Below are positions 16,032 through 28,326 of a stretch of DNA of 64,000 bases, one piece after another. This DNA is from Chloroflexota bacterium (GTDB lineage Bacteria; Chloroflexota; Anaerolineae; Anaerolineales; Villigracilaceae), in contig JACRLB010000007.1 in NCBI GenBank assembly GCA_016235445.1, positions 124,001 through 188,000 on the forward strand, in the 5' to 3' direction. Numbering within the stretch: position 1 is the stretch's first letter; each line of letters opens with the position of its first letter. The position numbers and the translations under genes were made by a program. A model generated the notes under the pieces. It was not told the DNA's origin. It saw only the letters and a program-made list of their open reading frames with translations, and did no database searches.

Positions 16032-17126
16032 ATGACAGAGACCAAACACGGCTATCTCGTACTGGCAGATATCAGCGGCTACACAAGCTACCTCGCGCAG
16101 GTGGAGTTGGACCACGCCCACGGGATCCTCACCGATTTACTGGAAACCATCGTCGGGCAATTCAAAACCATCTTCACCATCTCGAAACTCGAAGGCGATG
16201 CCGTCTTCGCAAACGTGGACGCAGAGAGAGTCATTCGCCCAGAATCCCTGCTAGAGTTAATCGAAAATACATACATTGCATTTCGCCGCAAACGCGATTC
16301 GTCCCAACGCGCCACCACCTGCACCTGCCGCGCCTGCCAAAACATCAGCGCCCTTGAACTCAAATTTTTCCTCCATCACGGCGATTACATCGTTCAAAAT
16401 ATTTCAGGCATCCGCGAACTCGTCGGCTCGGACGTCAACCTCATCCACCGCCTGACAAAAAACCACATCACCGAAAACACCGGCTGGAAAGCCTACGCGC
16501 TTCTCACGCAGGTTGCCGTCGAATGCCTCAACATGCAATTCGATGGACTCCATCCACAGGACGAAACCTACGAGCACCTCGGCACGGTTCCCACCTGGAC
16601 CTTCGACCTGATTCCCCGCCATCAGGCATTGACCTCCGCCCAAAGAGTCACCATCCCGCCCGAAGAAGCAGACGTAATCACCAGCCGCGAAATCAACGCA
16701 CCCCTCGCCAGCTTGTGGGATTGGATGATGGATATACAAAACCGCAACAAAACCATGGGCGGCATGGGGCATTGGACGGCCATCTCACGCGGCAAAGGCG
16801 ATCGCTCTGGAGTTGGCTCCATCAATCACTGCGCACACGGCAAAGGCATCTCACAGGAAACCATACTGGATTGGCGCCCCTTTGAATATGCCACCGTCGA
16901 AACTGTGGACGGCCAGGCCATGTTCCGTGAAATGCTCATGTTTGAACCAACGGATGAAGGCAGGCGCACAAAACTGGAAGTCCGCGTCAAAATGCTCAAA
17001 CCCAGGCCCGTATTTCTGGCTCGTCTCATGGTGAAGATGGAATTCCGCAAGAAAAATCCATACAAAATGTGGTTCGAAATCATCGAAGAACTGCTTGCAG
17101 AAGCAGACCGCCCCAGCCTTTTGTGA
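16032..17126 (+). CDS. DUF2652 class III cyclase-like domain fused to SRPBCC domain
   Basis: The 364-residue cytosolic protein has two parts. Residues 5-165 follow the class III nucleotide-cyclase fold: LADISGYT with D13, KLEGDAVF with K52 and D56, LHHGDYIV, then GSDVNLIHRL with N136 and R140. In active cyclases the two Asp bind metals, and the Asn and Arg four residues apart stabilise the transition state; all are present. An inserted CTCRAC motif (97-102) may bind metal. Residues about 210-355 are an SRPBCC/START-like ligand-binding domain (SREINAPLASLWDWM). The next gene starts inside its stop codon. Cyclase activity is an inference; the family is formally of unknown function. Confidence 0.8.
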   Translation: MTETKHGYLVLADISGYTSYLAQVELDHAHGILTDLLETIVGQFKTIFTISKLEGDAVFANVDAERVIRPESLLELIENTYIAFRRKRDSSQRATTCTCRACQNISALELKFFLHHGDYIVQNISGIRELVGSDVNLIHRLTKNHITENTGWKAYALLTQVAVECLNMQFDGLHPQDETYEHLGTVPTWTFDLIPRHQALTSAQRVTIPPEEADVITSREINAPLASLWDWMMDIQNRNKTMGGMGHWTAISRGKGDRSGVGSINHCAHGKGISQETILDWRPFEYATVETVDGQAMFREMLMFEPTDEGRRTKLEVRVKMLKPRPVFLARLMVKMEFRKKNPYKMWFEIIEELLAEADRPSLL

Positions 17127-20068
17127 TCAACAAACTCGCCTCCCTCCTCAACATCCGCAGTGAAGAAAACAAAACCGCCGCCCTGCTCACTGGCATCATG
17201 CTTCTGAGCGCGGCAGGATACAGCCTCGGCGGCACGGGCATCGAGGCGCTGTATTTCGCACGCTACGGCACAGACCTTCTGCCCTATCTTTACATGGGGC
17301 TGGGCATCCTTTCTTTAATCACAACACTGCTTATCACAGGCCTGCTCGGCAGGGTCAAACGCGAGCGGATGTACACCCTCATCCCTTTGGCCGCAGTACT
17401 ATTTCTCGTGGCCGCATGGGTTCTGCTTTTCAGCGCATCCAAACTTGTTTACCCCGCCTTGTGGCTCGGCAAGGAATCACTCAACACCATCATCAGCATG
17501 ATCGCATGGAATACCGCAGGCGCGGTTTGCGATGCGCGGCAGGCGAAAAGGCTGTTCCCAATTTTCAACGCCGCGCGGATTCTTGGCGCCGTGCTCGGCG
17601 GAATCAGCACCGGCACACTGGTCAACCTGATCGGGACGCAAAACCTTGTGCTCGTGTGGGCCGCCTGCATGGGAGCGGCGTTTGGGATGACGCGAATGCT
17701 GATGGGTGGAAAAAGCAATTTAACAGCAACCAGCCCAAAGCGGCGACCAGATGCGAGGCGCGTCAAACGGCGTTCCCCGGCCTTCATCGAAGAAATAAAA
17801 AAAGGCTGGCGCTACGTACGCGGGTCGGCGCTCATGCGTTGGGCCTCTGCGGCGGCTGTTCTTTTTTCAGTTTTATATTTTTCCATCGCCCTGCCATTTT
17901 CAAGATCCGCCGCCGCGCGATACACCGACGAAAACGAACTCGCCGCCTTCCTCGGTTTATTCAACGGCCTGAGCACAGCCGCCGCTTTCGCTACTTCCAT
18001 ATTTTTTGCAAACCGCCTATATGCCCGCTTCGGAATCATGAATATGATTTTGGTATTCCCGCTCATTTATTTGCTGGGCTTCGGCGCGCTCTCGTTTTCG
18101 AATATTTTTTCCGTCATCGTGGTATTTCGATTCGCGCAAACGCTCTGGCTTTCAGGCATCGCAGACGCGGCCTGGCAAACCATGTTCAGCGCGGTGCCGC
18201 CCGAAAAGCGCGATCAGGTGAATGCATTTCTCAACGGCGTGCCCGAACAGGCGGGCGTATTTCTGGCGGGCGGCATTCTGATCATCGGCGAGCAAAACTT
18301 CACCACGCAACAACTTTACCTGGTTGGGCTGGCCGCCGCGGCAATCACCAGTTTCATCATCCTGCGCGCATCATCTGCCTATCGCGGCGCGCTGGTCAGT
18401 TCACTGCGCGAAGGCCGCCCAACCATTTTCACCGGGCGCGCAAGCCCATACGATTCAACCTCCCACACTGTGGCGTTGGAAAACACAACCAACCCCGACC
18501 CATCGATACGGCGCGTTGCCGTGGAAATGCTGGGAGAAATGAACACCCCTGAAACTCTCGTCCGCTCTTTGCAGGATGAAGATTTGAATGTGCGCCTTGC
18601 CGCCCTAAGAGGATTGACTCATCACACACCTGCCATGCTCGAAGTTTCCACGCTTCTTGACGACCCCGAACCTGCCTCCCGCCAACAAGCCATTCTCACG
18701 CTGAGACATTTATCCCCCTACCCGCGCGGCCTGGGCATTTTGCTCGAACCCAAATTACAGGATGAAAACGCGCATGTCCAAATTGAAGCCGCACTGGGGT
18801 TGTTGAAAATCCACGAACATGAATATGCCCGCGAATTAATTCGCCGCACCTGTGTGGATGGCGCCCTTGCCGAGCGCGTTCATGCGTTGAATGCCATGTC
18901 TGAACTGGGCGACATGCCAGCCTACTCACTGATCGCGGAGCAACTGGACGATAAAGCCGCATCCATTCGCCGCGCCGCCGCGCTTGCCCTGGCATCCTGC
19001 GGAGAGGATGCAATCCCAACCCTGATCGGTTCTCTCAACGATGAAGATTCATCTGCCCGCGAAGGCATTGCGCTTGCGCTCGCACAGATTGGCAAAAAGT
19101 CAACCCGCCATGTAATTCAAGCAATGAACAACCCTGCATACTCCGAAGGCGCATTGACCGCTCTCGAGCATTTGCCCATTCATGGGCGCGAGGGTGAAGT
19201 TAAATCCTTTGCCGCCAAAAAGATCGAATCAGCCCTGCGCTATCATCGCCTTGGCAGTGACTTGATCGGAGAGAGCGGAGAGCGTATTGCCCTGCTGAGG
19301 GCATTCATTTTTCACCAATCCCACAAATTCGGTTTGCAAGCCCTGCGGGCATTGGGTCTGTTGCACGACCGCGAGAGCATACATGTGGCAATCGAGAACC
19401 TGCAAAGCAAATCACCCACGCAAAAAGCCAACGCGCTCGAAACACTCGAAGCAGTGCGCGACTGGCGCTTAATCAAGCCGCTTCTTCAAGTATGGGAATC
19501 CCCTGACCAGCAGTATCCCCATACTGGTTACACGCAAGAAATTGTTGCCCAACTTCTTCAAGACCCCGATGAATGGATGCGCGGGTGCGCCCATTTTGTA
19601 TTGGAAGGTAAACCTATGAATACACACGCATCACTTTCAACGATGGAGCGGGTTTTATTGCTGAGAAAAGTGCCGCTCTTTGGCGACCTCTCCCCTTCAG
19701 ATTTGCAACACATGGCGGCGCTGGTCAGCGAACATCATGTCGAAAAAGATGGGGTTATCTTTGAACAGGGCGAATCAGGCGAAGAAATGTTCGTGATCGT
19801 GCATGGCGAAGTGAAAGTAATGATGCAAAACTCGGAAGAACATGAAAGAGAAGTGGCAAGGCGCGGAGCGGGCGATGTAGTTGGCGAGATGTCCATTATC
19901 AGCGGTGAGCCTCGCATCGCTTCCCTGATTGCCGTGGAGGATTCTCACTTCCTTTGTTTCGATAAAAAATCATTCGAGGGACTTCTTCGTGAACGGCCAG
20001 AAGTGAGCCTTGCGATCATGCGGGTTTTGTGCGCGCGCCTGGAAGAAGCCACAAAGCAACAGCCATGA
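17123..20068 (+). CDS. Npt/MFS-like transporter fused to HEAT repeats and a cyclic-nucleotide-binding domain
   Basis: The 981-residue protein starts at GTG 17123, overlapping the previous stop as GTGA. Residues about 10-415 form some twelve membrane helices resembling the ATP:ADP antiporter/MFS group (GYSLGGTGIEALYFARYG, EEIKKGWRYVRGSALMRW, SAVPPEKRDQVNAFLNGV). Residues about 450-800 are HEAT/PBS-lyase-like repeats (NPDPSIRRVAVEMLGEM, DEDLNVRLAALRGL). The C-terminal 140 residues are a cNMP-binding domain with the phosphate cassette GEMSIISGEPRIASL, keeping the key Glu and Arg. Together with the cyclase-like gene it suggests a cyclic-nucleotide-gated membrane protein. Transported substrate is unknown. 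Confidence 0.87.
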   Translation: MINKLASLLNIRSEENKTAALLTGIMLLSAAGYSLGGTGIEALYFARYGTDLLPYLYMGLGILSLITTLLITGLLGRVKRERMYTLIPLAAVLFLVAAWVLLFSASKLVYPALWLGKESLNTIISMIAWNTAGAVCDARQAKRLFPIFNAARILGAVLGGISTGTLVNLIGTQNLVLVWAACMGAAFGMTRMLMGGKSNLTATSPKRRPDARRVKRRSPAFIEEIKKGWRYVRGSALMRWASAAAVLFSVLYFSIALPFSRSAAARYTDENELAAFLGLFNGLSTAAAFATSIFFANRLYARFGIMNMILVFPLIYLLGFGALSFSNIFSVIVVFRFAQTLWLSGIADAAWQTMFSAVPPEKRDQVNAFLNGVPEQAGVFLAGGILIIGEQNFTTQQLYLVGLAAAAITSFIILRASSAYRGALVSSLREGRPTIFTGRASPYDSTSHTVALENTTNPDPSIRRVAVEMLGEMNTPETLVRSLQDEDLNVRLAALRGLTHHTPAMLEVSTLLDDPEPASRQQAILTLRHLSPYPRGLGILLEPKLQDENAHVQIEAALGLLKIHEHEYARELIRRTCVDGALAERVHALNAMSELGDMPAYSLIAEQLDDKAASIRRAAALALASCGEDAIPTLIGSLNDEDSSAREGIALALAQIGKKSTRHVIQAMNNPAYSEGALTALEHLPIHGREGEVKSFAAKKIESALRYHRLGSDLIGESGERIALLRAFIFHQSHKFGLQALRALGLLHDRESIHVAIENLQSKSPTQKANALETLEAVRDWRLIKPLLQVWESPDQQYPHTGYTQEIVAQLLQDPDEWMRGCAHFVLEGKPMNTHASLSTMERVLLLRKVPLFGDLSPSDLQHMAALVSEHHVEKDGVIFEQGESGEEMFVIVHGEVKVMMQNSEEHEREVARRGAGDVVGEMSIISGEPRIASLIAVEDSHFLCFDKKSFEGLLRERPEVSLAIMRVLCARLEEATKQQP

Positions 20069-21645: not shown

Positions 21646-24600
21646 ATGGCTGAATCAAACACTGCGCGCAAAACAAAAATATTCATCTCTTATTCACGCA
21701 AGGATAAGGCATTCGTCCGCAAATTGAACGATGCCATCGATGCCGCCGGCATCGACGCCTGGGTGGATTGGGAAGGCATCCCCCTCAGCTCAGACTGGAT
21801 GTCGGAGATTCAAGGCGCCATCGAGAGCGGAGACGCGTTTGTGTTTGTCATCAGCCCTGATTCGCTGAAATCCCAAATCTGCCAGAACGAACTGGAATTG
21901 GGGATTAAGAACAACAAAAAGATCATTCCCGTTCTGTATCGCGACCCTGAAAAAAGACAAAAGATGCACCCCAAACTGGCTTCCACCAATTGGGTGTATC
22001 TGCGCTCCCGCAAGGATGATTTCAGGGCAACCATTCCAAAGTTAGTGGATGCGATTCAAACCGACCTGGGCTGGGTACAGCAACACACCCGCCTGCTCGA
22101 ACGCGGCACAGAATGGGAGCGAAAGAACAAGAGTAAAAGCTACCTCCTGCAGGGCGAAGACCTGGAGAACGGCGAAAAGTGGATGACCGAATCCACCGAG
22201 CAAACAGGCCGCGAGGTTGTCCCCGTTCAAGCCGAATACATCAGTTCCAGCCGAAAAAATGCGGTTCAACGGCAGAGAAATCTCACCATCGGCATCGGCC
22301 TGGTTATGATCTTGAGCATCTTCCTTGGGATTTTTGCATTGCTTCAATGGAATTCGGCTGAAGAAAATGCAAACCTCGCCCGTAGAAGCGCAGAAGCCGC
22401 CGCGGCCAGTGAAAAAGTTGCGCTCACCCAGCAGGCAATTGCCGAGGAAAAACAGGAACTGGCGCTTAAAAATGAAAACGAAGCAAAAGCCCAACGCAGT
22501 GCGGCGCAAGCCGGGGCGTACAGAGAACGGCCCGGGCAATTAAACACCAGCACATTACTGGCGCTCGAATCATTAAGCCGCCAGCCTTCCACCGAGGCGG
22601 AAGATGTACTGCGTCACAACCTGAGCATCATGCCAATCCCTGCGGCGCAGGTGAAACACAATGGACGGATATGGAATCTCCACATCAGCGAGGACGGGCA
22701 ATACATCGTCTCTTCCAGCGCGGATCATACCGCCTGTGTGTGGACATGGCAGGGAGAGCGCGTCCTTTGCGTACAGCACGAAAGTGACGTGACCGACGCC
22801 ATGCTAACCAACGACAACAGCCTTCTCGTCACCGCCAGCCTGGATGGTTCTGTGCGGCTTTGGGATTTCAAGAACGGCTCCCCGCTGGAAGCATTCAACT
22901 ACGAGGCAAATGTTCTGGATATTGACCTCAGCCCCAATGGAAGCCTGCTCGCCGCCGGGCGCAAGGATGGATTCGTCTCCATTGTCAACATCGACATTCG
23001 ACAAAATGTCTACAACTACAACTTTTCAAAAGGCCCTGTGAGTATCGTCCAATTTCACCCCGGCGGAGAATGGCTGGGCGTTGGCACAAAAACGGGCGGG
23101 GTTCGCATCTGGAAGGCAATGACCAGCCTTGTAGAAGCCGGCCCCATCCACGAAGCAGAAATATTCAACCTGGCCTTCAGCCCGGATGGAAAACTCCTCG
23201 CCTCCGCAAGCGAAGACAGTTCCGCACGCATCGCGCGCGCAGAGACCGGACGAGAGACTCTTGCCATCCAACATCCGGACTGGGTGGAGGATGTTGCCTT
23301 CAGCCCGGACAGTTCCTGGTTCGTCACCGTTTCAGACGACAAAATCGTCCGCGTGCTGGATTCGGAAAGCGGGCGTGAAAAACTACGCATGTCCCATGGC
23401 AGTTTTGTCCAACGCGTGGAAGTCAGCCCAAACGGGGAATGGATTCTCAGCACAGGCTACGATCTAACCGCCAGACTCTGGGATTCCCAAACGGGCGCGT
23501 TAATGTTCGAAGCATCCATAGATGGAGTTGGCTCCGCCCTGACGTTCAGCCAGGATGGAAGCCAGATCATCATTGGCGACCGCAATGGCAATATCACCAT
23601 TTGGGACGTTTCCTTATTGAAGGCAAGAGTTGGCTACATCGGCTTTACGGAATTCGTGAACAAGGCAAAGTTCGACCCTGCCGGCCAGTGGATGCTGATC
23701 AATACCGACGACAAAAATCTTTGGCAAATTCCCACAGACCAGCTCACCACCATCCACGACGGCACGTTGGGGACGAACGTGCTTACTTTCGATGAGCTTA
23801 CCGCGCAATTAAAGGTCAGCCCGGATTCAAAATGGATCGCCATCTCAGTCAACTCAGAGGTCTCCAACTCCAGGGCGGTTTTGTACAACCTGGAAACAAA
23901 GGTTTTACATTCCCTGCCCCACAGTTCAGACATCAGCGGACTGGCCATCAGCCCAGAAGGCAAATTCCTCGCGACAACCAACGAAGGCAATACCAGCGTC
24001 TTCATTTGGGAGATCGAATCGGGTCAGCAGATAAATGAACTTCAATTTACGGATGTGGCCTTCACTTCCGCGTACAGCCCCAAAGACCCAATTTTAGCAA
24101 TCGGCTTTGCAAACAAAACCGTTCTGTGGGACACAACTTCCAACACCGAAATTGCCACGCTCGATCAGGTCGGCGATATCAGGTCGCTTACATTCAATCT
24201 TGAAGGGAACTGGCTGGCCACCACAAGTTCCGATGGCAGTATCTTTGTTTGGGATATGAACAAAAAGGATTATTCCCAGCCCGCCTACCAATTCTTGCAG
24301 GACGGAAGAATCACCTCACTGGACTTTAATTCCAAAATGGGCTGGCTCGCCTCCGCCGGCGCGGACGGCTACGTCTACCTCTGGGATCTTAACACTGGCG
24401 AAGAAATCGTCCGCATCCCGCATGGAGATTTTGTTTCAGGAATCAACTTTTCACCGGATGGCCGCCTGCTTTCCTCCGTCTCCCGAAAAAGCCTGCAAAT
24501 CTGGGATGTCAACCTGCTCGTTCCAATTTCAAAAGACCAACTCGCAGAAGCGGCCTGTTCGCGCCTCGTCAGAAATTTAACACCAAGCCAGTGGAGCTTC

Positions 24601-24654
24601 TTCTTCCAGGAAGAGGAATACCGCCCGCTTTGCCCCAACCTACCCCAGCAGTAA
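21646..24654 (+). CDS. TIR domain - transmembrane - WD40 propeller protein
   Basis: This is a 1002-residue protein. Residues 8-140 are a TIR domain: KIFISYSRKDKAFVRKL, AWVDWEGIP, FVFVISPDSLKSQICQNELE with a candidate catalytic Glu (E82), and KKIIPVLYRD. A membrane helix lies at about 213-234 (ITIGIGLVMILSIFLGIFAL), followed by a coiled coil (235-290) and the segment LNTSTLLALESLSRQPSTEAE. About twelve to fourteen WD40 repeats fill 320-960, enough for two beta propellers. The end motif RLVRNLTPSQWSFFF...YRPLCPNLP is shared with many bacterial WD40 signalling proteins. There is no P-loop NTPase, unlike STAND relatives. It likely senses a ligand or partner via WD40 and acts through TIR NADase or scaffold activity. 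Confidence 0.92.
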   Translation: MAESNTARKTKIFISYSRKDKAFVRKLNDAIDAAGIDAWVDWEGIPLSSDWMSEIQGAIESGDAFVFVISPDSLKSQICQNELELGIKNNKKIIPVLYRDPEKRQKMHPKLASTNWVYLRSRKDDFRATIPKLVDAIQTDLGWVQQHTRLLERGTEWERKNKSKSYLLQGEDLENGEKWMTESTEQTGREVVPVQAEYISSSRKNAVQRQRNLTIGIGLVMILSIFLGIFALLQWNSAEENANLARRSAEAAAASEKVALTQQAIAEEKQELALKNENEAKAQRSAAQAGAYRERPGQLNTSTLLALESLSRQPSTEAEDVLRHNLSIMPIPAAQVKHNGRIWNLHISEDGQYIVSSSADHTACVWTWQGERVLCVQHESDVTDAMLTNDNSLLVTASLDGSVRLWDFKNGSPLEAFNYEANVLDIDLSPNGSLLAAGRKDGFVSIVNIDIRQNVYNYNFSKGPVSIVQFHPGGEWLGVGTKTGGVRIWKAMTSLVEAGPIHEAEIFNLAFSPDGKLLASASEDSSARIARAETGRETLAIQHPDWVEDVAFSPDSSWFVTVSDDKIVRVLDSESGREKLRMSHGSFVQRVEVSPNGEWILSTGYDLTARLWDSQTGALMFEASIDGVGSALTFSQDGSQIIIGDRNGNITIWDVSLLKARVGYIGFTEFVNKAKFDPAGQWMLINTDDKNLWQIPTDQLTTIHDGTLGTNVLTFDELTAQLKVSPDSKWIAISVNSEVSNSRAVLYNLETKVLHSLPHSSDISGLAISPEGKFLATTNEGNTSVFIWEIESGQQINELQFTDVAFTSAYSPKDPILAIGFANKTVLWDTTSNTEIATLDQVGDIRSLTFNLEGNWLATTSSDGSIFVWDMNKKDYSQPAYQFLQDGRITSLDFNSKMGWLASAGADGYVYLWDLNTGEEIVRIPHGDFVSGINFSPDGRLLSSVSRKSLQIWDVNLLVPISKDQLAEAACSRLVRNLTPSQWSFFFQEEEYRPLCPNLPQQ

Positions 24655-24667
24655 AAGAGGAACCTTT

Positions 24668-25966
24668 ATGGAAACACAACCTCAACAACCCACGCCCATC
24701 CTTGAAATCGCATGGACGCGCTACGCGCAAATGGATACCTACGCAAAAAAGAGAACCAAAGCCCATTTGCGCTCCCGCCGCTGGATCGCCGCGCTCAGTG
24801 TGCTGGCAACGCTCCTCGCCATTCTCACCACAGTCTTCCCCGTGGAGTTATTTTCACTGCTGGGGGTTGTACTTAAATTCCTTTTGATCCTCACACCCAT
24901 CCTCGCATCTGCATTGGCCGCTTATGGCAGTAAATTTCTATCGAGCGGCGATTGGCTGATCGCGCGCGCCGGGGCGGAAGAAATTCTCAAGGAAATATAC
25001 AACTATCGCACCGTCCTGAAAAACGCACCCACACGCAACGCCTGGCTGGAGAAACGCCTCGCGGAAATTCAACGCTCGGTCTTTCGCGGCATGAACGGCG
25101 AATTGACCATGCCGCCATACGCAGGGCCATTACCCCCCAATTACTCACCGGATAATCCATACAGCGACCCCGGCTTCGACGACCTGGCCGGCGACGAATA
25201 TTTCAAATACAGGCTGGAGTCTCAACTTGGCTGGCACGTAGAAAGGGTAAATAAAAGACAGGCTGAACGCACCCGCCTGCAAGCCTTTATCATTCTCTCC
25301 GGCGTTTTCGGCGCCATGTTCGCTGTGTTCCTCCCATTATGGACAGCCCTGGCCGCCTCCTTAACCGCAGTATTCATCGGCTGGCAGGAATTGCGCAATC
25401 TTGATTCCATCGTCCGAAACTACAGCAAAGTCATCGTCGAATTGAGCATCCTCTTCGACCACTGGAAAAACCTCGGCGGCAGGGAAAAAAACTCCACCGA
25501 GTTTTTCAAGATCGTACGCTCCACCGAAGATATTCTCTGGAGCCAGAACGTCGAATACATCAAAGCCATGCAGGAAGCCCTCAAAGAATCCGACCTGGAA
25601 GAAGAAGCCAACCTCATCAACCGCGTCATCAAAGAAGCCCGCGAATCAGACCGCAGGCTCAAACAATCCATGGAAGACGCAGTCGTCGAATTCACCAGCG
25701 AAAAACTTGGCGAAGCAGAGGAAACCCTCAGCGAAGCCTTTGAAACCGCGCTGAACACCCTCGCAGAAGAAGCCTCTTCGGATATCGTGAAGGCCGAACT
25801 CGAAGCCATGCAAAAAGGCATTCAAGAGCGAATCGCCGGGCTTAAATCCACACTCGAAGGGCTGGCCGAAGAATTCTCAGGCGTGGATATTGGCCGCAAC
25901 ACCCCGCCCGCCGTATTGAACAACCTGCTATCCCGTTACCCCAAATCTCAGGAAACCAAGGGATAA
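24668..25966 (+). CDS. tandem SLATT/DUF4231-like 2TM membrane protein
   Basis: The 432-residue protein holds two helical-hairpin modules. Module one is residues 14-118: charged helix RYAQMDTYAKKRTKAHLRSR, membrane helices about 39-57 and 64-86, then a conserved amphipathic helix ARAGAEEILKEIYNYRTVLK. Module two is residues 178-275, with membrane helices about 204-222 and 224-241 and a following helix NYSKVIVELSILFDHWKN. This is the SLATT/DUF4231 pattern, predicted in the literature to form membrane pores as the effector of nucleotide-sensing conflict systems. A long acidic coiled coil follows (280-415). RBS AAGAGGAA precedes the ATG; the gap to the TIR gene is 13 bases. Confidence 0.8.
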   Translation: METQPQQPTPILEIAWTRYAQMDTYAKKRTKAHLRSRRWIAALSVLATLLAILTTVFPVELFSLLGVVLKFLLILTPILASALAAYGSKFLSSGDWLIARAGAEEILKEIYNYRTVLKNAPTRNAWLEKRLAEIQRSVFRGMNGELTMPPYAGPLPPNYSPDNPYSDPGFDDLAGDEYFKYRLESQLGWHVERVNKRQAERTRLQAFIILSGVFGAMFAVFLPLWTALAASLTAVFIGWQELRNLDSIVRNYSKVIVELSILFDHWKNLGGREKNSTEFFKIVRSTEDILWSQNVEYIKAMQEALKESDLEEEANLINRVIKEARESDRRLKQSMEDAVVEFTSEKLGEAEETLSEAFETALNTLAEEASSDIVKAELEAMQKGIQERIAGLKSTLEGLAEEFSGVDIGRNTPPAVLNNLLSRYPKSQETKG

Positions 25967-25983
25967 CCCAAAGGATATTAATC

Positions 25984-28326
25984 ATGACTGACGATCAAAA
26001 CGCCGCCCCCGCACCAAAGGAAAACACCCCCTCCGCTTCCCCCTCAGCGACGCCTGCCGCAACACCAACGGCCACCGCCCCCGCTGACGCATCCACTGCC
26101 ACAGCGGCGCAGACTGCCCCAGTCGTGGAATCAGCTGAAAGTCCCAGCCAGACGCGGCCGTTAATTCTTCCACATGCTTTTGTGGTGATGCCCTTCGGGA
26201 AAAAGAAAGGCGCCGACGAGTCGCCCTACGACTTCAACGCCATTTACGAGCTGATGATCAAACCCGCATTGAAAGCGGCGGGCTTCCAACCCTTCCGCGC
26301 AGACGAAGAGAAATCCTCCGGCGATATTCTGACCGACATGTTTCAGGAGCTTTTGCTTGCAGACCTCGTCCTCTGCGACCTGAGCATAGACAACGCCAAT
26401 GCTTTCTATGAATTGGGTATCCGTCATGCGTTTCGCAAACGCGGCGTGGTGCATATCCAGGCGGGGCGCGCCTACATGCCCTTTGATATTTTCAACGTGC
26501 GCACCTTGCCGTATCACATCACCCCCGAAGGCGTGCCCGACCCTGCATTCCTGAAAAACGATATCCAGGCCATTGCGCGCATGACCAAAGACACTTGGGC
26601 CTCCGACCGCGATGCAGTCCACAGCCCGATCTACAACCTGCTTTCCGGGCTGGTGGAACCGGATCGAAAAACACTGCGCACGCCCCTGGCAACAGGTTTT
26701 TGGCGCGAATACAACGAATGGAAACAACGGGTGACGGTTGCCCAGCGTCAAAAGCGCATCGGTGATATTCTTCTGCTCACCGAGGAAATCCGTAACCCGC
26801 TCATCAAGGAAGAGGCCATTGGCGAAGCCGGCAATGCGCTTGCCAACATGGGGCGCAATGAACTGGCGTTGGAACAATATCGCAAAGGGCTGGATGCGAA
26901 CCCAACCAACCATGCCTTCCGCCGTGAAGAAGCCTTTCACCTCAACCGCCTTGGCCGCGTGGACGAAGCCATCGTAAAGATCGAAAGCCTGCTGACCGAT
27001 TTTCCCAACGATAGCGAAGCCATCTCTTATTTGGGACGGATCTACAAGGAGATGTGGGCTGAATCCTGGAAGGATATTCCAGACAAGGCCAAACGCCTCA
27101 AGGCCGCCTTCGATTCGTATCACTGGCTGATCAAGGCCATCGATATTTATCTCAAAGGCTATCGCATCGACCTGAACAATTATTATCCCGGCGTAAACGC
27201 ACTCACGCTCTCCACGATTGCAATCCACCTGGCAGACCGCTTCGACGATAAAAAAGACCCAGACCCGGATATTGCAAGGATTCGCGGGGAATTGCCCGAA
27301 CTCAAAGGCGCCCTGATCTTTGCGCTGGAAACAAAAGTGGATGATGACAACGTGGATTATTGGACATTGATCTCGCTCGCCGAACTGCGCGCCCTGACAG
27401 CCGATAACACCGCCAATGTCATTCGCTCGTACCGCAAAGCGCTGACAGCCTCGCGGCGCAGTCTGTTCTTCCTGCAAGCCTCCCTTTCTCAACTGGAGAT
27501 TTTACGCGCCCTGGAACTGCGGGGTGAATATGTGCAGGCCGCCATTGGCATCCTCGAAGAGGAAATGGGCCGCGTTGGCAAAGATGATGTACACCAATCC
27601 CCGGGCAAAATCAAAAAAGGAAAGAAAACAACAACCGCCTCCGAAGGACAGGTCTTTATTTTCGCAGGGTACATGGTGGATTACCCCAGCAAGGAAAAGA
27701 AAACCTTCCCGCCCGACAGGGAGGATGATATCCGCGGCGAGATTCTCAAAAAGCTCGAAAAATACAACGCAGGGCCAAATGACATTGCCATTCTGGCCGG
27801 CCTTTCATCGGGCAGTGAGATCATCTTCGCCGAGGTATGCGCCGAGAAGGGCATCCACGTGGACGCGCACCTGCCCCTCCCTGAAGCAGGATACATTCGC
27901 GAATTTGTATCCCCTGGTGGTGAAAGCTGGATCGACCGCTTTTACAAGATTCGCAGTCACCCGCTTGTGGATGAGTACTATCAGGCGGAGAATATCGGCG
28001 AAGTGAAGGAAGGAGACGACCCCTACGAACGCAACAACCGCTGGGCGCTCTATTCATCCCTCATCCGCAGTGTAGACAAAGTAACCTTGATTGCCGTCTG
28101 GAACGGTCTCGGCGGCCGTCCCAAAGACCGCGACGCGCGCCTCACCCGCCACATGGTGGAATTGATGCGTGAAACAGGCGGAAAGATCGAGATCATCAAC
28201 ACCGCCAAATATATTCAAGGATTCATCGCCGGGGCGATTGACGGTCTCCCGGATTTGAGCAAACCAGCCCCGGGAAAATCAAGAATTCAAAAACGGAGCG
28301 TGAAAGTCCCTGCAAAGGGTAAATAA
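25984..28326 (+). CDS. deoxyribosyltransferase/TIR-like domain - TPR (TRAFs-binding type) - SLOG-like protein
   Basis: A Pro/Ala/Thr-rich leader (1-60) is followed by a Rossmann-like domain (62-190): HAFVVMPFG, ILTDMFQELLLADLVLCDLS and DNANAFYELGIRHA, where E143 sits at the place of the catalytic Glu of nucleoside deoxyribosyltransferases and DRHyd/TIR-like enzymes. Residues about 220-520 are TPR-like helices of the MAP3K TRAFs-binding (DUF4071) type. Residues about 545-765 form a second Rossmann-like domain (DIAILAGLSSGSEIIFAEVC, GIHVDAHLPLPEAGYIREFV, KVTLIAVWNGLGG) resembling SLOG ligand-sensing domains. The gene starts 17 bases after the SLATT gene and ends the cassette at a terminator. 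Domain names are by motif reading; the reaction is unproven. Confidence 0.8.
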   Translation: MTDDQNAAPAPKENTPSASPSATPAATPTATAPADASTATAAQTAPVVESAESPSQTRPLILPHAFVVMPFGKKKGADESPYDFNAIYELMIKPALKAAGFQPFRADEEKSSGDILTDMFQELLLADLVLCDLSIDNANAFYELGIRHAFRKRGVVHIQAGRAYMPFDIFNVRTLPYHITPEGVPDPAFLKNDIQAIARMTKDTWASDRDAVHSPIYNLLSGLVEPDRKTLRTPLATGFWREYNEWKQRVTVAQRQKRIGDILLLTEEIRNPLIKEEAIGEAGNALANMGRNELALEQYRKGLDANPTNHAFRREEAFHLNRLGRVDEAIVKIESLLTDFPNDSEAISYLGRIYKEMWAESWKDIPDKAKRLKAAFDSYHWLIKAIDIYLKGYRIDLNNYYPGVNALTLSTIAIHLADRFDDKKDPDPDIARIRGELPELKGALIFALETKVDDDNVDYWTLISLAELRALTADNTANVIRSYRKALTASRRSLFFLQASLSQLEILRALELRGEYVQAAIGILEEEMGRVGKDDVHQSPGKIKKGKKTTTASEGQVFIFAGYMVDYPSKEKKTFPPDREDDIRGEILKKLEKYNAGPNDIAILAGLSSGSEIIFAEVCAEKGIHVDAHLPLPEAGYIREFVSPGGESWIDRFYKIRSHPLVDEYYQAENIGEVKEGDDPYERNNRWALYSSLIRSVDKVTLIAVWNGLGGRPKDRDARLTRHMVELMRETGGKIEIINTAKYIQGFIAGAIDGLPDLSKPAPGKSRIQKRSVKVPAKGK

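What the first reader, a model, noticed from the sequence alone, without database searches (positions are those of the whole stretch)
16032..20068. Possible cyclic-nucleotide circuit: DUF2652 cyclase-like gene overlapping a transporter-HEAT-cNMP-binding gene
The DUF2652 domain keeps the residues expected in class III cyclases (D13, K52, D56, N136, R140), although DUF2652 is listed as of unknown function. The next gene overlaps by 4 bases and ends in a cNMP-binding domain whose phosphate cassette keeps Glu and Arg. A source of cyclic nucleotide and its membrane target may thus be translationally coupled. The SRPBCC part could bring ligand control.
Basis: partly seen in the sequence, partly recalled or inferred. 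Interest (0 to 1): 0.7.

Follow-up and report, generated by a model that had tools for sequence, protein, structure and literature searches.

The report
Cyclase-like gene paired with nucleotide transporter
In some environmental Chloroflexota bacteria, a gene that looks like an enzyme making a cyclic-nucleotide messenger sits directly in front of a gene for an ATP-carrier-like membrane transporter with a built-in messenger-binding domain; the pairing recurs, so the idea that such transporters are messenger-controlled can now be tested.

Summary
Gene A (16032-17126) is DUF2652 plus an SRPBCC domain. Its predicted structure matches class III nucleotide cyclases (CyaC and Cya2, Z 19.7), and D13, K52, D56, N136 and R140 line up with cyclase positions. 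Gene B (17123-20068) is not a generic transporter: its membrane domain belongs with the ATP/ADP carriers (NTT; AtNTT1 Z 33.8, NTT1 proteins the only PDB sequence hits), followed by HEAT repeats and a cyclic-nucleotide-binding domain with an intact Glu/Arg cassette. A pattern-based scan of one genome per 84,980 species gave 23 gene B loci, all Chloroflexota; a DUF2652 gene lies directly upstream on the same strand at 17. Other flanking gene families are shared by at most 4 of 17 loci. The 4-base overlap is seen in 5 of 17 pairs. Both halves were known separately: DUF2652 was proposed as cyclase-like in 2016, and NTT-HEAT-cNBD was described in 2017 with the suggestion that cAMP tunes it. The link between them is the new part; the searches made found no paper on it. 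Enzyme activity, ligand and transport substrate are untested, and the host has other cyclase genes.

The parts
16032..17126 (+). gene A: DUF2652 (class III cyclase-like) + SRPBCC protein, 364 aa
   Evidence: AF2 model pLDDT 85.3, pTM 0.83
16032..16631 (+). cyclase-homology domain (residues 1-200)
   Evidence: VIA-align Z 19.7 to CyaC 1wc1 and Cya2 2w01; Foldseek
16068..16070 (+). D13, predicted metal Asp 1
   Evidence: aligned to the first metal-Asp stretch of CyaC 1wc0; Asp in 50 of 51 rows, gap in one
16185..16187 (+). K52, predicted base-reading residue
   Evidence: aligned to the Lys of the CyaC K..GDa stretch
16197..16199 (+). D56, predicted metal Asp 2
   Evidence: aligned to the Asp of the CyaC GDa stretch; 51 of 51 rows
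16320..16337 (+). C97-x-C99-x2-C102 motif, role unknown (possible metal or redox site)
   Evidence: CCC in 47 and HCC in 3 of 50 rows with residues there
16416..16418 (+). E129, predicted second base-reading residue
   Evidence: 52/129 is K-E in 17 and Q-Q in 2 of 19 paired rows
16437..16451 (+). N136...R140, predicted transition-state pair
   Evidence: GxxVNxxxRL aligned to CyaC in a second, low-scoring stretch; N136 in 19 of 19 paired rows
16671..17048 (+). SRPBCC (Polyketide_cyc2) domain, residues 214-339
   Evidence: profile and fold match to 1xuv
16827..16841 (+). invariant H266-C267-x-H269-G270 in the SRPBCC domain
   Evidence: invariant in the 19 rows of alignment A3
17123..17126 (+). 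GTGA overlap, gene B start / gene A stop
   Evidence: 4-base overlap also in L066, L072, L075, L085
17123..20068 (+). gene B: NTT-HEAT-cNBD protein, 981 aa
   Evidence: AF2 model pLDDT 82.5, pTM 0.54
17123..18412 (+). NTT-type nucleotide-carrier domain (residues 1-430)
   Evidence: only PDB sequence hits at E<=1 are NTT1 carriers; Z 33.8 to AtNTT1
17531..17569 (+). NTT signature stretch, residues D137-N149
   Evidence: aligned to the AtNTT1 stretch that contains DEAKKFYPLFG; Q140 falls on its Glu, K142 and R143 on its two Lys
18455..19612 (+). HEAT repeats (about residues 445-830)
19658..20056 (+). cyclic-nucleotide-binding domain (residues 846-978)
19883..19921 (+). phosphate-binding cassette G921-E922 ... 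R931-x-A933
   Evidence: Glu and Arg in 19 of 19 rows that reach it, window included

Best explanation
The two genes form a conserved two-part module. Gene A is a soluble class III-type nucleotide cyclase (DUF2652 subfamily) with a C-terminal SRPBCC ligand-binding domain. Gene B is a nucleotide carrier of the NTT superfamily whose cytoplasmic tail (HEAT solenoid plus cNBD) reads a cyclic mononucleotide. In the likely working order, a signal sensed by the SRPBCC domain and perhaps the Cys motif sets cyclase output; the cNMP, probably cAMP or cGMP, binds the cNBD; and a rearrangement relayed by the HEAT arm opens or closes the carrier, matching nucleotide exchange to cell state. Shown here: gene anatomy, predicted fold, catalytic-site residues, cNBD cassette, NTT kinship and recurrent adjacency. 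Inferred: enzyme activity, messenger identity, SRPBCC control, gating and transported substrate.
For: [quoted passage not shown] Catalytic residues: the profile aligns D13, K52, D56 and the VNxxxRL motif with CyaC, and both Asp are kept in 50 of 51 rows. Base-reading pair: sites 52 and 129 tend to change together, K/R with E/D in 36 and Q/N with a non-acid in 13 of 50 rows, 1 exception. Pairing: DUF2652 lies directly upstream of gene B at 17 of 23 loci in otherwise different surroundings, no other neighbour family being shared by more than 4 of 17 loci. Persistence: the gene B tree needs 5 changes of the paired label, against 9.9 on average in shuffles, 1 of 500 being as low. Two distant DUF2652 groups, the main clade and L085/L088, both sit upstream of gene B. 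In two genomes without adjacency a gene A of the main clade persists elsewhere (L155, L158). Gene B: NTT kinship and intact cassette.
Against: The parts read of the two papers that name DUF2652 report no enzyme assay. Pfam's cyclase model PF00211 is not among the matches of 18 family members at E<=10, though the filters drop most matches above 0.1, and CyaC is found only at E 0.054, so sequence kinship to known cyclases is remote. The host has conventional class III cyclase genes (9 PF00211 matches in 6 open frames) and 14 cNMP-binding matches, gene B among them, so the cNBD may read a shared pool. Gene B relatives without gene A next door keep the cassette. Two genomes of the phylum sample (G248, G290) have a gene B relative and a DUF2652 gene on different contigs. 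A Glu in AtNTT1 aligns with Gln140 here, so ATP transport cannot be assumed. The 52/129 co-change has exceptions: five further proteins have Gly52 with Glu129, and the test ignores phylogeny.
Confidence: 0.55

Rival explanations
1. Gene A is a working cyclase, but there is no private circuit: it adds to the general cAMP pool, gene B reads that pool, and the two genes are only co-expressed.
For: 9 PF00211 matches in 6 open frames and 14 PF00027 matches (gene B among them) in the same genome; cNBD cassette kept in gene B relatives without gene A alongside; a gene A of the main clade present but unlinked in two genomes.
Against: Adjacency at 17 of 23 loci while the other neighbours turn over is more than a shared pool needs.
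Confidence: 0.25
2. Gene A keeps the cyclase fold but is not a cyclase: it is a nucleotide- or ligand-binding regulatory partner (SRPBCC being the main sensor) that acts on gene B by contact.
For: I found no assay for the family; PF00211 does not recognise it; residue 52 varies, for example Gly in five relatives; invariant Cys motif and HCxHG motif of unknown role.
Against: Both metal Asp and Arg140 are almost invariant (50 and 49 of 51 rows), which a dead enzyme would not need.
Confidence: 0.13
3. The pair is a Pycsar-like immune module: infection triggers a pyrimidine cyclic nucleotide, and the carrier dumps or depletes nucleotides.
For: Same two-gene logic, class III cyclase plus a receptor that is a membrane or TIR protein (Pycsar as described in passages of PMC11224242); the window has TIR-WD40 and SLATT genes nearby.
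Against: Gene A matches no PADLOC model at E<=0.01; gene B matches Pycsar models only through its cNBD. In the flanks of the other 16 pair loci the only homolog of these neighbours found is a WD40 open frame in L072, at a different place.
Confidence: 0.05
4. The adjacency is an accident of a conserved chromosome region.
For: All pairs found are in one phylum, and several loci have short flanks.
Against: Flanks differ: the most widely shared neighbour family occurs in 4 of 17 loci; gene B proteins down to 38% identity to the window's keep the pair (L085).
Confidence: 0.02

Closest known systems
DUF2652 cyclase-like proteins (Ramakrishnan et al. 2016, PMC4886424)
   Same: Same Pfam family, same kind of predicted class III residues (D, D; K-E pair; Arg). 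One DUF2652 + polyketide-cyclase fusion (Bradyrhizobium U1IMS0) and cNBD gene neighbours in mycobacteria are listed there.
   Different: That set covers Actinobacteria, Bacteroidetes and Proteobacteria; 'Chloroflexi' does not occur in the main text. Their mycobacterial set has Ile where the paired members here have Asn136. No NTT partner is described in the parts read.
NTT-HEAT-cNBD fusions (Major et al. 2017, PMC5381601)
   Same: Same domain order; the authors already suggest that the cNBD could bind cAMP and adjust ATP uptake.
   Different: No dedicated cyclase gene is reported in the section and passages read; only 2 Chloroflexi sequences are in their table.
Class III adenylyl/guanylyl cyclases CyaC, Cya2, CyaB
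   Same: Fold (Z 19.3-19.7); metal and transition-state residues align with CyaC.
   Different: About 15% identity; Lys-Glu in place of the usual Lys-Asp (usual pair as described in PMC4886424); added Cys motif and SRPBCC domain.
Pycsar (PycC + PycTM/PycTIR)
   Same: Class III-type cyclase gene paired with a gene for a cyclic-nucleotide receptor.
   Different: Gene A has no PADLOC match and the membrane part of gene B is an NTT-type carrier. The base-reading residues quoted for PycC were not compared by alignment.

Membership tests
Class III nucleotidyl cyclase | cyclase-homology fold | tested here: met
   predicted model, (Z 19.7, 181 and 186 residues aligned)
Class III nucleotidyl cyclase | two metal-binding Asp | tested here: met
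   D13 and D56 align with CyaC; both kept in 50 of 51 rows
Class III nucleotidyl cyclase | transition-state Asn/Arg | tested here: met
   N136 and R140 (the CyaC alignment of this stretch scores low)
Class III nucleotidyl cyclase | base-specifying residue pair | tested here: inconclusive
   K52-E129 resembles but is not the canonical Lys-Asp; Q-Q in L085/L088
Class III nucleotidyl cyclase | sequence match to PF00211 (a recogniser, not a defining feature) | tested here: not met
   not among the 8 families listed for 18 members at E<=10
Class III nucleotidyl cyclase | dimer and catalytic activity | not testable with these tools
   needs biochemistry
DUF2652 (PF10851) | profile match above cut-off | tested here: met
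   85.8 bits against cut-off 22.1
NTT nucleotide transporter | sequence-profile kinship | tested here: met
   only two PDB sequences at E<=1, both NTT1 (9e-7, 3.3e-6); TLC PF03219 in 16 of 20 rows of A4, but not listed for the window protein itself
NTT nucleotide transporter | NTT fold rather than another MFS | tested here: met
   AtNTT1 Z 33.8, best non-NTT (LacY) 29.4
NTT nucleotide transporter | substrate-binding charged residues (recalled from AtNTT1 mutants) | tested here: inconclusive
   Q140 aligns with the Glu of DEAKKFYP; K142 and R143 align with its two Lys
NTT nucleotide transporter | nucleotide transport | not testable with these tools
   needs an uptake assay
NTT-HEAT-cNBD architecture | three domains in this order | tested here: met
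Pycsar | PycC profile match of the cyclase | tested here: not met
   0 PADLOC families for gene A at E<=0.01
Pycsar | PycTM or PycTIR effector | tested here: not met
   gene B matches Pycsar models only by its cNBD, has no TIR match in Pfam, and its membrane part is NTT-type

The most novel reading that the evidence does not exclude
A private second-messenger loop in which a DUF2652 cyclase with its own sensor domain gates a nucleotide carrier: an ATP/ADP-carrier relative under direct cyclic-nucleotide control. The cyclase's substrate pool and the carrier's cargo could be the same nucleotide, giving a self-tuning loop. The Q-Q branch (L085, L088) might use a different nucleotide from the K-E branch.
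Probability: 0.3. Interest if true: 0.78.

Novelty: new variant of a known kind. Interest (0 to 1): 0.56.

Why it matters
The cNBD on NTT-HEAT carriers has had no identified messenger source in the papers seen, and DUF2652 no identified target. The recurrent pair connects the two, so one operon can test whether DUF2652 is a cyclase, which cNMP the tail reads, and whether a nucleotide carrier can be gated by a second messenger. It would also suggest a role for NTT-type proteins in environmental bacteria with multi-megabase genomes, where dependence on a host's ATP is not an obvious explanation.

Tried and rejected
Pycsar membership: not met by PADLOC for gene A. Generic MFS permease: replaced by NTT. 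Chromosome-wide synteny as the cause: disfavoured because flanks turn over. A constant partner for unpaired DUF2652 genes in Chloroflexota: none seen by reading the nearest open frames by eye (not a profile search; L035 and L036 share a MerR-like neighbour). Plasmid relatives: 2 records, both alphaproteobacterial, with no NTT-like gene in the annotated stretch. Asn136 as a mark of pairing: 19 of 19 paired against 7 of 31 unpaired, but the gene A tree shows that kinship confounds this, and unpaired proteins added later also have Asn. PDB profile searches of gene A had de novo helical proteins among or above the cyclase hits, judged compositional. A profile that mixed in full-length gene B rows (A6) was uninformative for the carrier and was redone with the carrier part alone (A7). 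Distances inside the models could not be measured, since no coordinates were available. The count of 281 of 301 genomes was not used, because cNBD matches make up many of its rows. Papers: outline, two whole-text parts of six, section 9 and passages of PMC4886424; section 4 and passages of PMC5381601; passages of PMC11224242; one passage of PMC12828279; the rest as search listings.

Rows dropped or short: L087 (gene A identical to L077); L034 is a fragment, blank at late columns; L088 is gapped at D13 and was left out of the gene B tree; the gene A tree leaves out L087, L034, L159, the second copies of L067 and L077 genes (L162, L170) and any unpaired row under 150 aa. L075 and L085 are taken to be the same records as L033 (G216) and L041 (G163), by equal contig length and scores. 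Some loci end close to the gene, for instance L053 and L081, so adjacency there is undecided.
Full report
What is there. Gene A (16032-17126, 364 aa) and gene B (17123-20068, 981 aa) lie on the + strand and overlap by the four bases GTGA. Pfam finds DUF2652 and Polyketide_cyc2 (SRPBCC) in A, and HEAT repeats, a cNMP-binding domain and a weak MFS match in B. The window lies in a 4.13 Mb assembly of 55 contigs; the relatives found are titled as Chloroflexi, Anaerolineales and the like, so I take it to be Chloroflexota.

Is A a cyclase by structure? An AlphaFold2 model was made without templates from 19 family members (pLDDT 85.3, pTM 0.83) and then compared with the PDB. [quoted passage not shown] the same entry matches residues of that half by profile). 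VIA-align gives Z 19.7 to both Cya2 and CyaC with 186 and 181 residues aligned, model residues 1-196 lying on CyaC 1005-1198. A profile of the N-terminal domain finds CyaC at a weak E of 0.054, but the alignment puts D13, K52 and D56 on the CyaC D...K...GD positions and, in a second and low-scoring stretch, the VNxxxRL motif on its counterpart. That profile's better-scoring hits are de novo helical proteins, which I take as compositional noise; PF00211 is not among the Pfam matches.

Are the residues kept? In 51 Chloroflexota DUF2652 rows both Asp are present in 50, the other having a gap at D13; Arg140 is present in 49, with one gap and one Gln. Sites 52 and 129, the expected base-reading pair, tend to change together: K/R with E/D in 36 rows, Q/N with a non-acid in 13, Q with an acid in 1 (Fisher 4e-11, not corrected for kinship). 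A further set includes a charge-swapped pair (Asp52-Lys129 in L163) but also five Gly52-Glu129 rows that break the simple rule. Asn136 is present in 19 of 19 paired and 7 of 31 unpaired rows, but the gene A tree shows strong kinship effects.

What is B? The carrier-domain profile matches only two sequences among 177,635 PDB sequences at E<=1, Chlamydia pneumoniae NTT1 (9e-7) and Arabidopsis NTT1 (3.3e-6). The model's best structural matches are the same two proteins (Z 33.8, 32.5, 31.9), above LacY at 29.4. Pfam TLC is found in 16 of 20 rows of alignment A4, though not in the window protein. B is therefore an NTT-HEAT-cNBD fusion of the kind described by Major et al. 2017. A Glu of AtNTT1 in DEAKKFYP aligns with Gln140 here, so the cargo is open. 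The cNBD keeps Glu922 and Arg931; the same Glu and Arg are in all 19 rows that reach the cassette, paired and unpaired. By hand alignment against a recalled CRP sequence (not a tool result), 10 of 13 paired proteins with a readable end have Thr or Ser near the place of CRP Ser128 (ends); PMC11224242 links Ser or Thr there to cAMP. The others, including Ile in L075, differ or end early.

Is the pairing real? A pattern-based scan of genome contigs with gene B gave 144 candidate stretches and 23 confirmed loci, all Chloroflexota by title. A DUF2652 gene lies directly upstream on the same strand in 17 of 23 (16 of 22 if L087, whose gene A equals L077's, is dropped); the six others are L068, L070, L078, L080, L081 (contig edge) and L086. 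L082 and L083 carry two tandem gene A copies, both with the key residues. In the set of 17 pairs (window plus 16 loci), 5 share the 4-base overlap and the rest have gaps from 0 to about 300 bases depending on the start chosen. Among the flanks of these 17 loci no other gene family is shared by more than 4; flanks are short in several loci and open frames were called crudely. From the DUF2652 side the picture is reversed: of 35 DUF2652 sites in 26 of 301 Chloroflexota genomes, 3 adjoin gene B, with at least one site (L053) at a contig edge. In that sample five genomes have the strongest gene B matches (over 600 bits): three are paired (G000, G216, G163), and two (G248, G290) have gene B of a sister group and DUF2652 on another contig. 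The pair is one specialised use of a broader family.

History. In the gene B tree the paired rows need 5 changes of label, shuffles 9.9 on average with 1 of 500 as low; one gain and four losses inside a 22-row clade would fit (quick method). In the gene A tree 17 of 19 paired rows fall in one 23-row clade, but L085 and L088 fall in a distant group, so either the association arose twice or it is old and A diverged. In the genomes of L068 and L080 a gene A of the main clade remains, unlinked (L155, L158). Of the other four without adjacency, two have only distant DUF2652 genes (L070, L078), one a broken copy on another contig (L081), and one none found (L086); these are draft genomes.

How it probably works. 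Signal to SRPBCC and cyclase, cNMP to the cNBD, HEAT relay to the carrier. Each functional step is inference from family knowledge. The host has other cyclase and cNBD genes (9 PF00211 matches in 6 open frames; 14 PF00027 matches including gene B), so a private circuit is not shown.

What is known and new. The cyclase reading of DUF2652 is from 2016 (PMC4886424), including one DUF2652 + polyketide-cyclase fusion and some cNBD neighbours. NTT-HEAT-cNBD, and the guess that cAMP tunes it, are from 2017 (PMC5381601). I found no paper joining them: searches for DUF2652 (two papers), for NTT/HEAT/cyclic-nucleotide terms (seen as listings apart from PMC5381601) and a combined search (none) cover only the held open-access library. 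I therefore rate it a new variant of a known kind.

Noticed in passing
window 21646-28326: Three consecutive same-strand genes: TIR_2 + WD40 repeats, SLATT_1/DUF4231 protein, and TPR-S/MAP3K_TRAF_bd protein; looks like a predicted nucleotide-driven conflict cluster.
   Followed up: partly
window 16320-16337 and 16827-16841: CxCxxC in the DUF2652 domain (first Cys is His in 3 of 50 rows) and HCxHG invariant in 19 rows of the SRPBCC domain; possible metal or redox sensing.
   Followed up: partly
L082:2512-4703 and L083:2569-4953: Two tandem DUF2652-SRPBCC genes ahead of the NTT gene, both with the key catalytic residues: a possible heterodimeric cyclase.
   Followed up: partly
L069:300-7889: A DUF2652 gene lies between two different NTT-HEAT-cNBD paralogs.
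   Followed up: no
L163:5178-6413: DUF2652 protein with Asp52-Lys129, a charge-swapped version of the Lys-Glu pair.
   Followed up: no
L079:962-3745: A conventional class III cyclase (PF00211) + AAA/TPR gene sits directly upstream of the DUF2652-NTT pair.
   Followed up: no
L154:4749-5483: In one of two alphaproteobacterial plasmids the DUF2652 gene is preceded by a Crp/Fnr regulator; the other plasmid (L153) has a transposase there.
   Followed up: no
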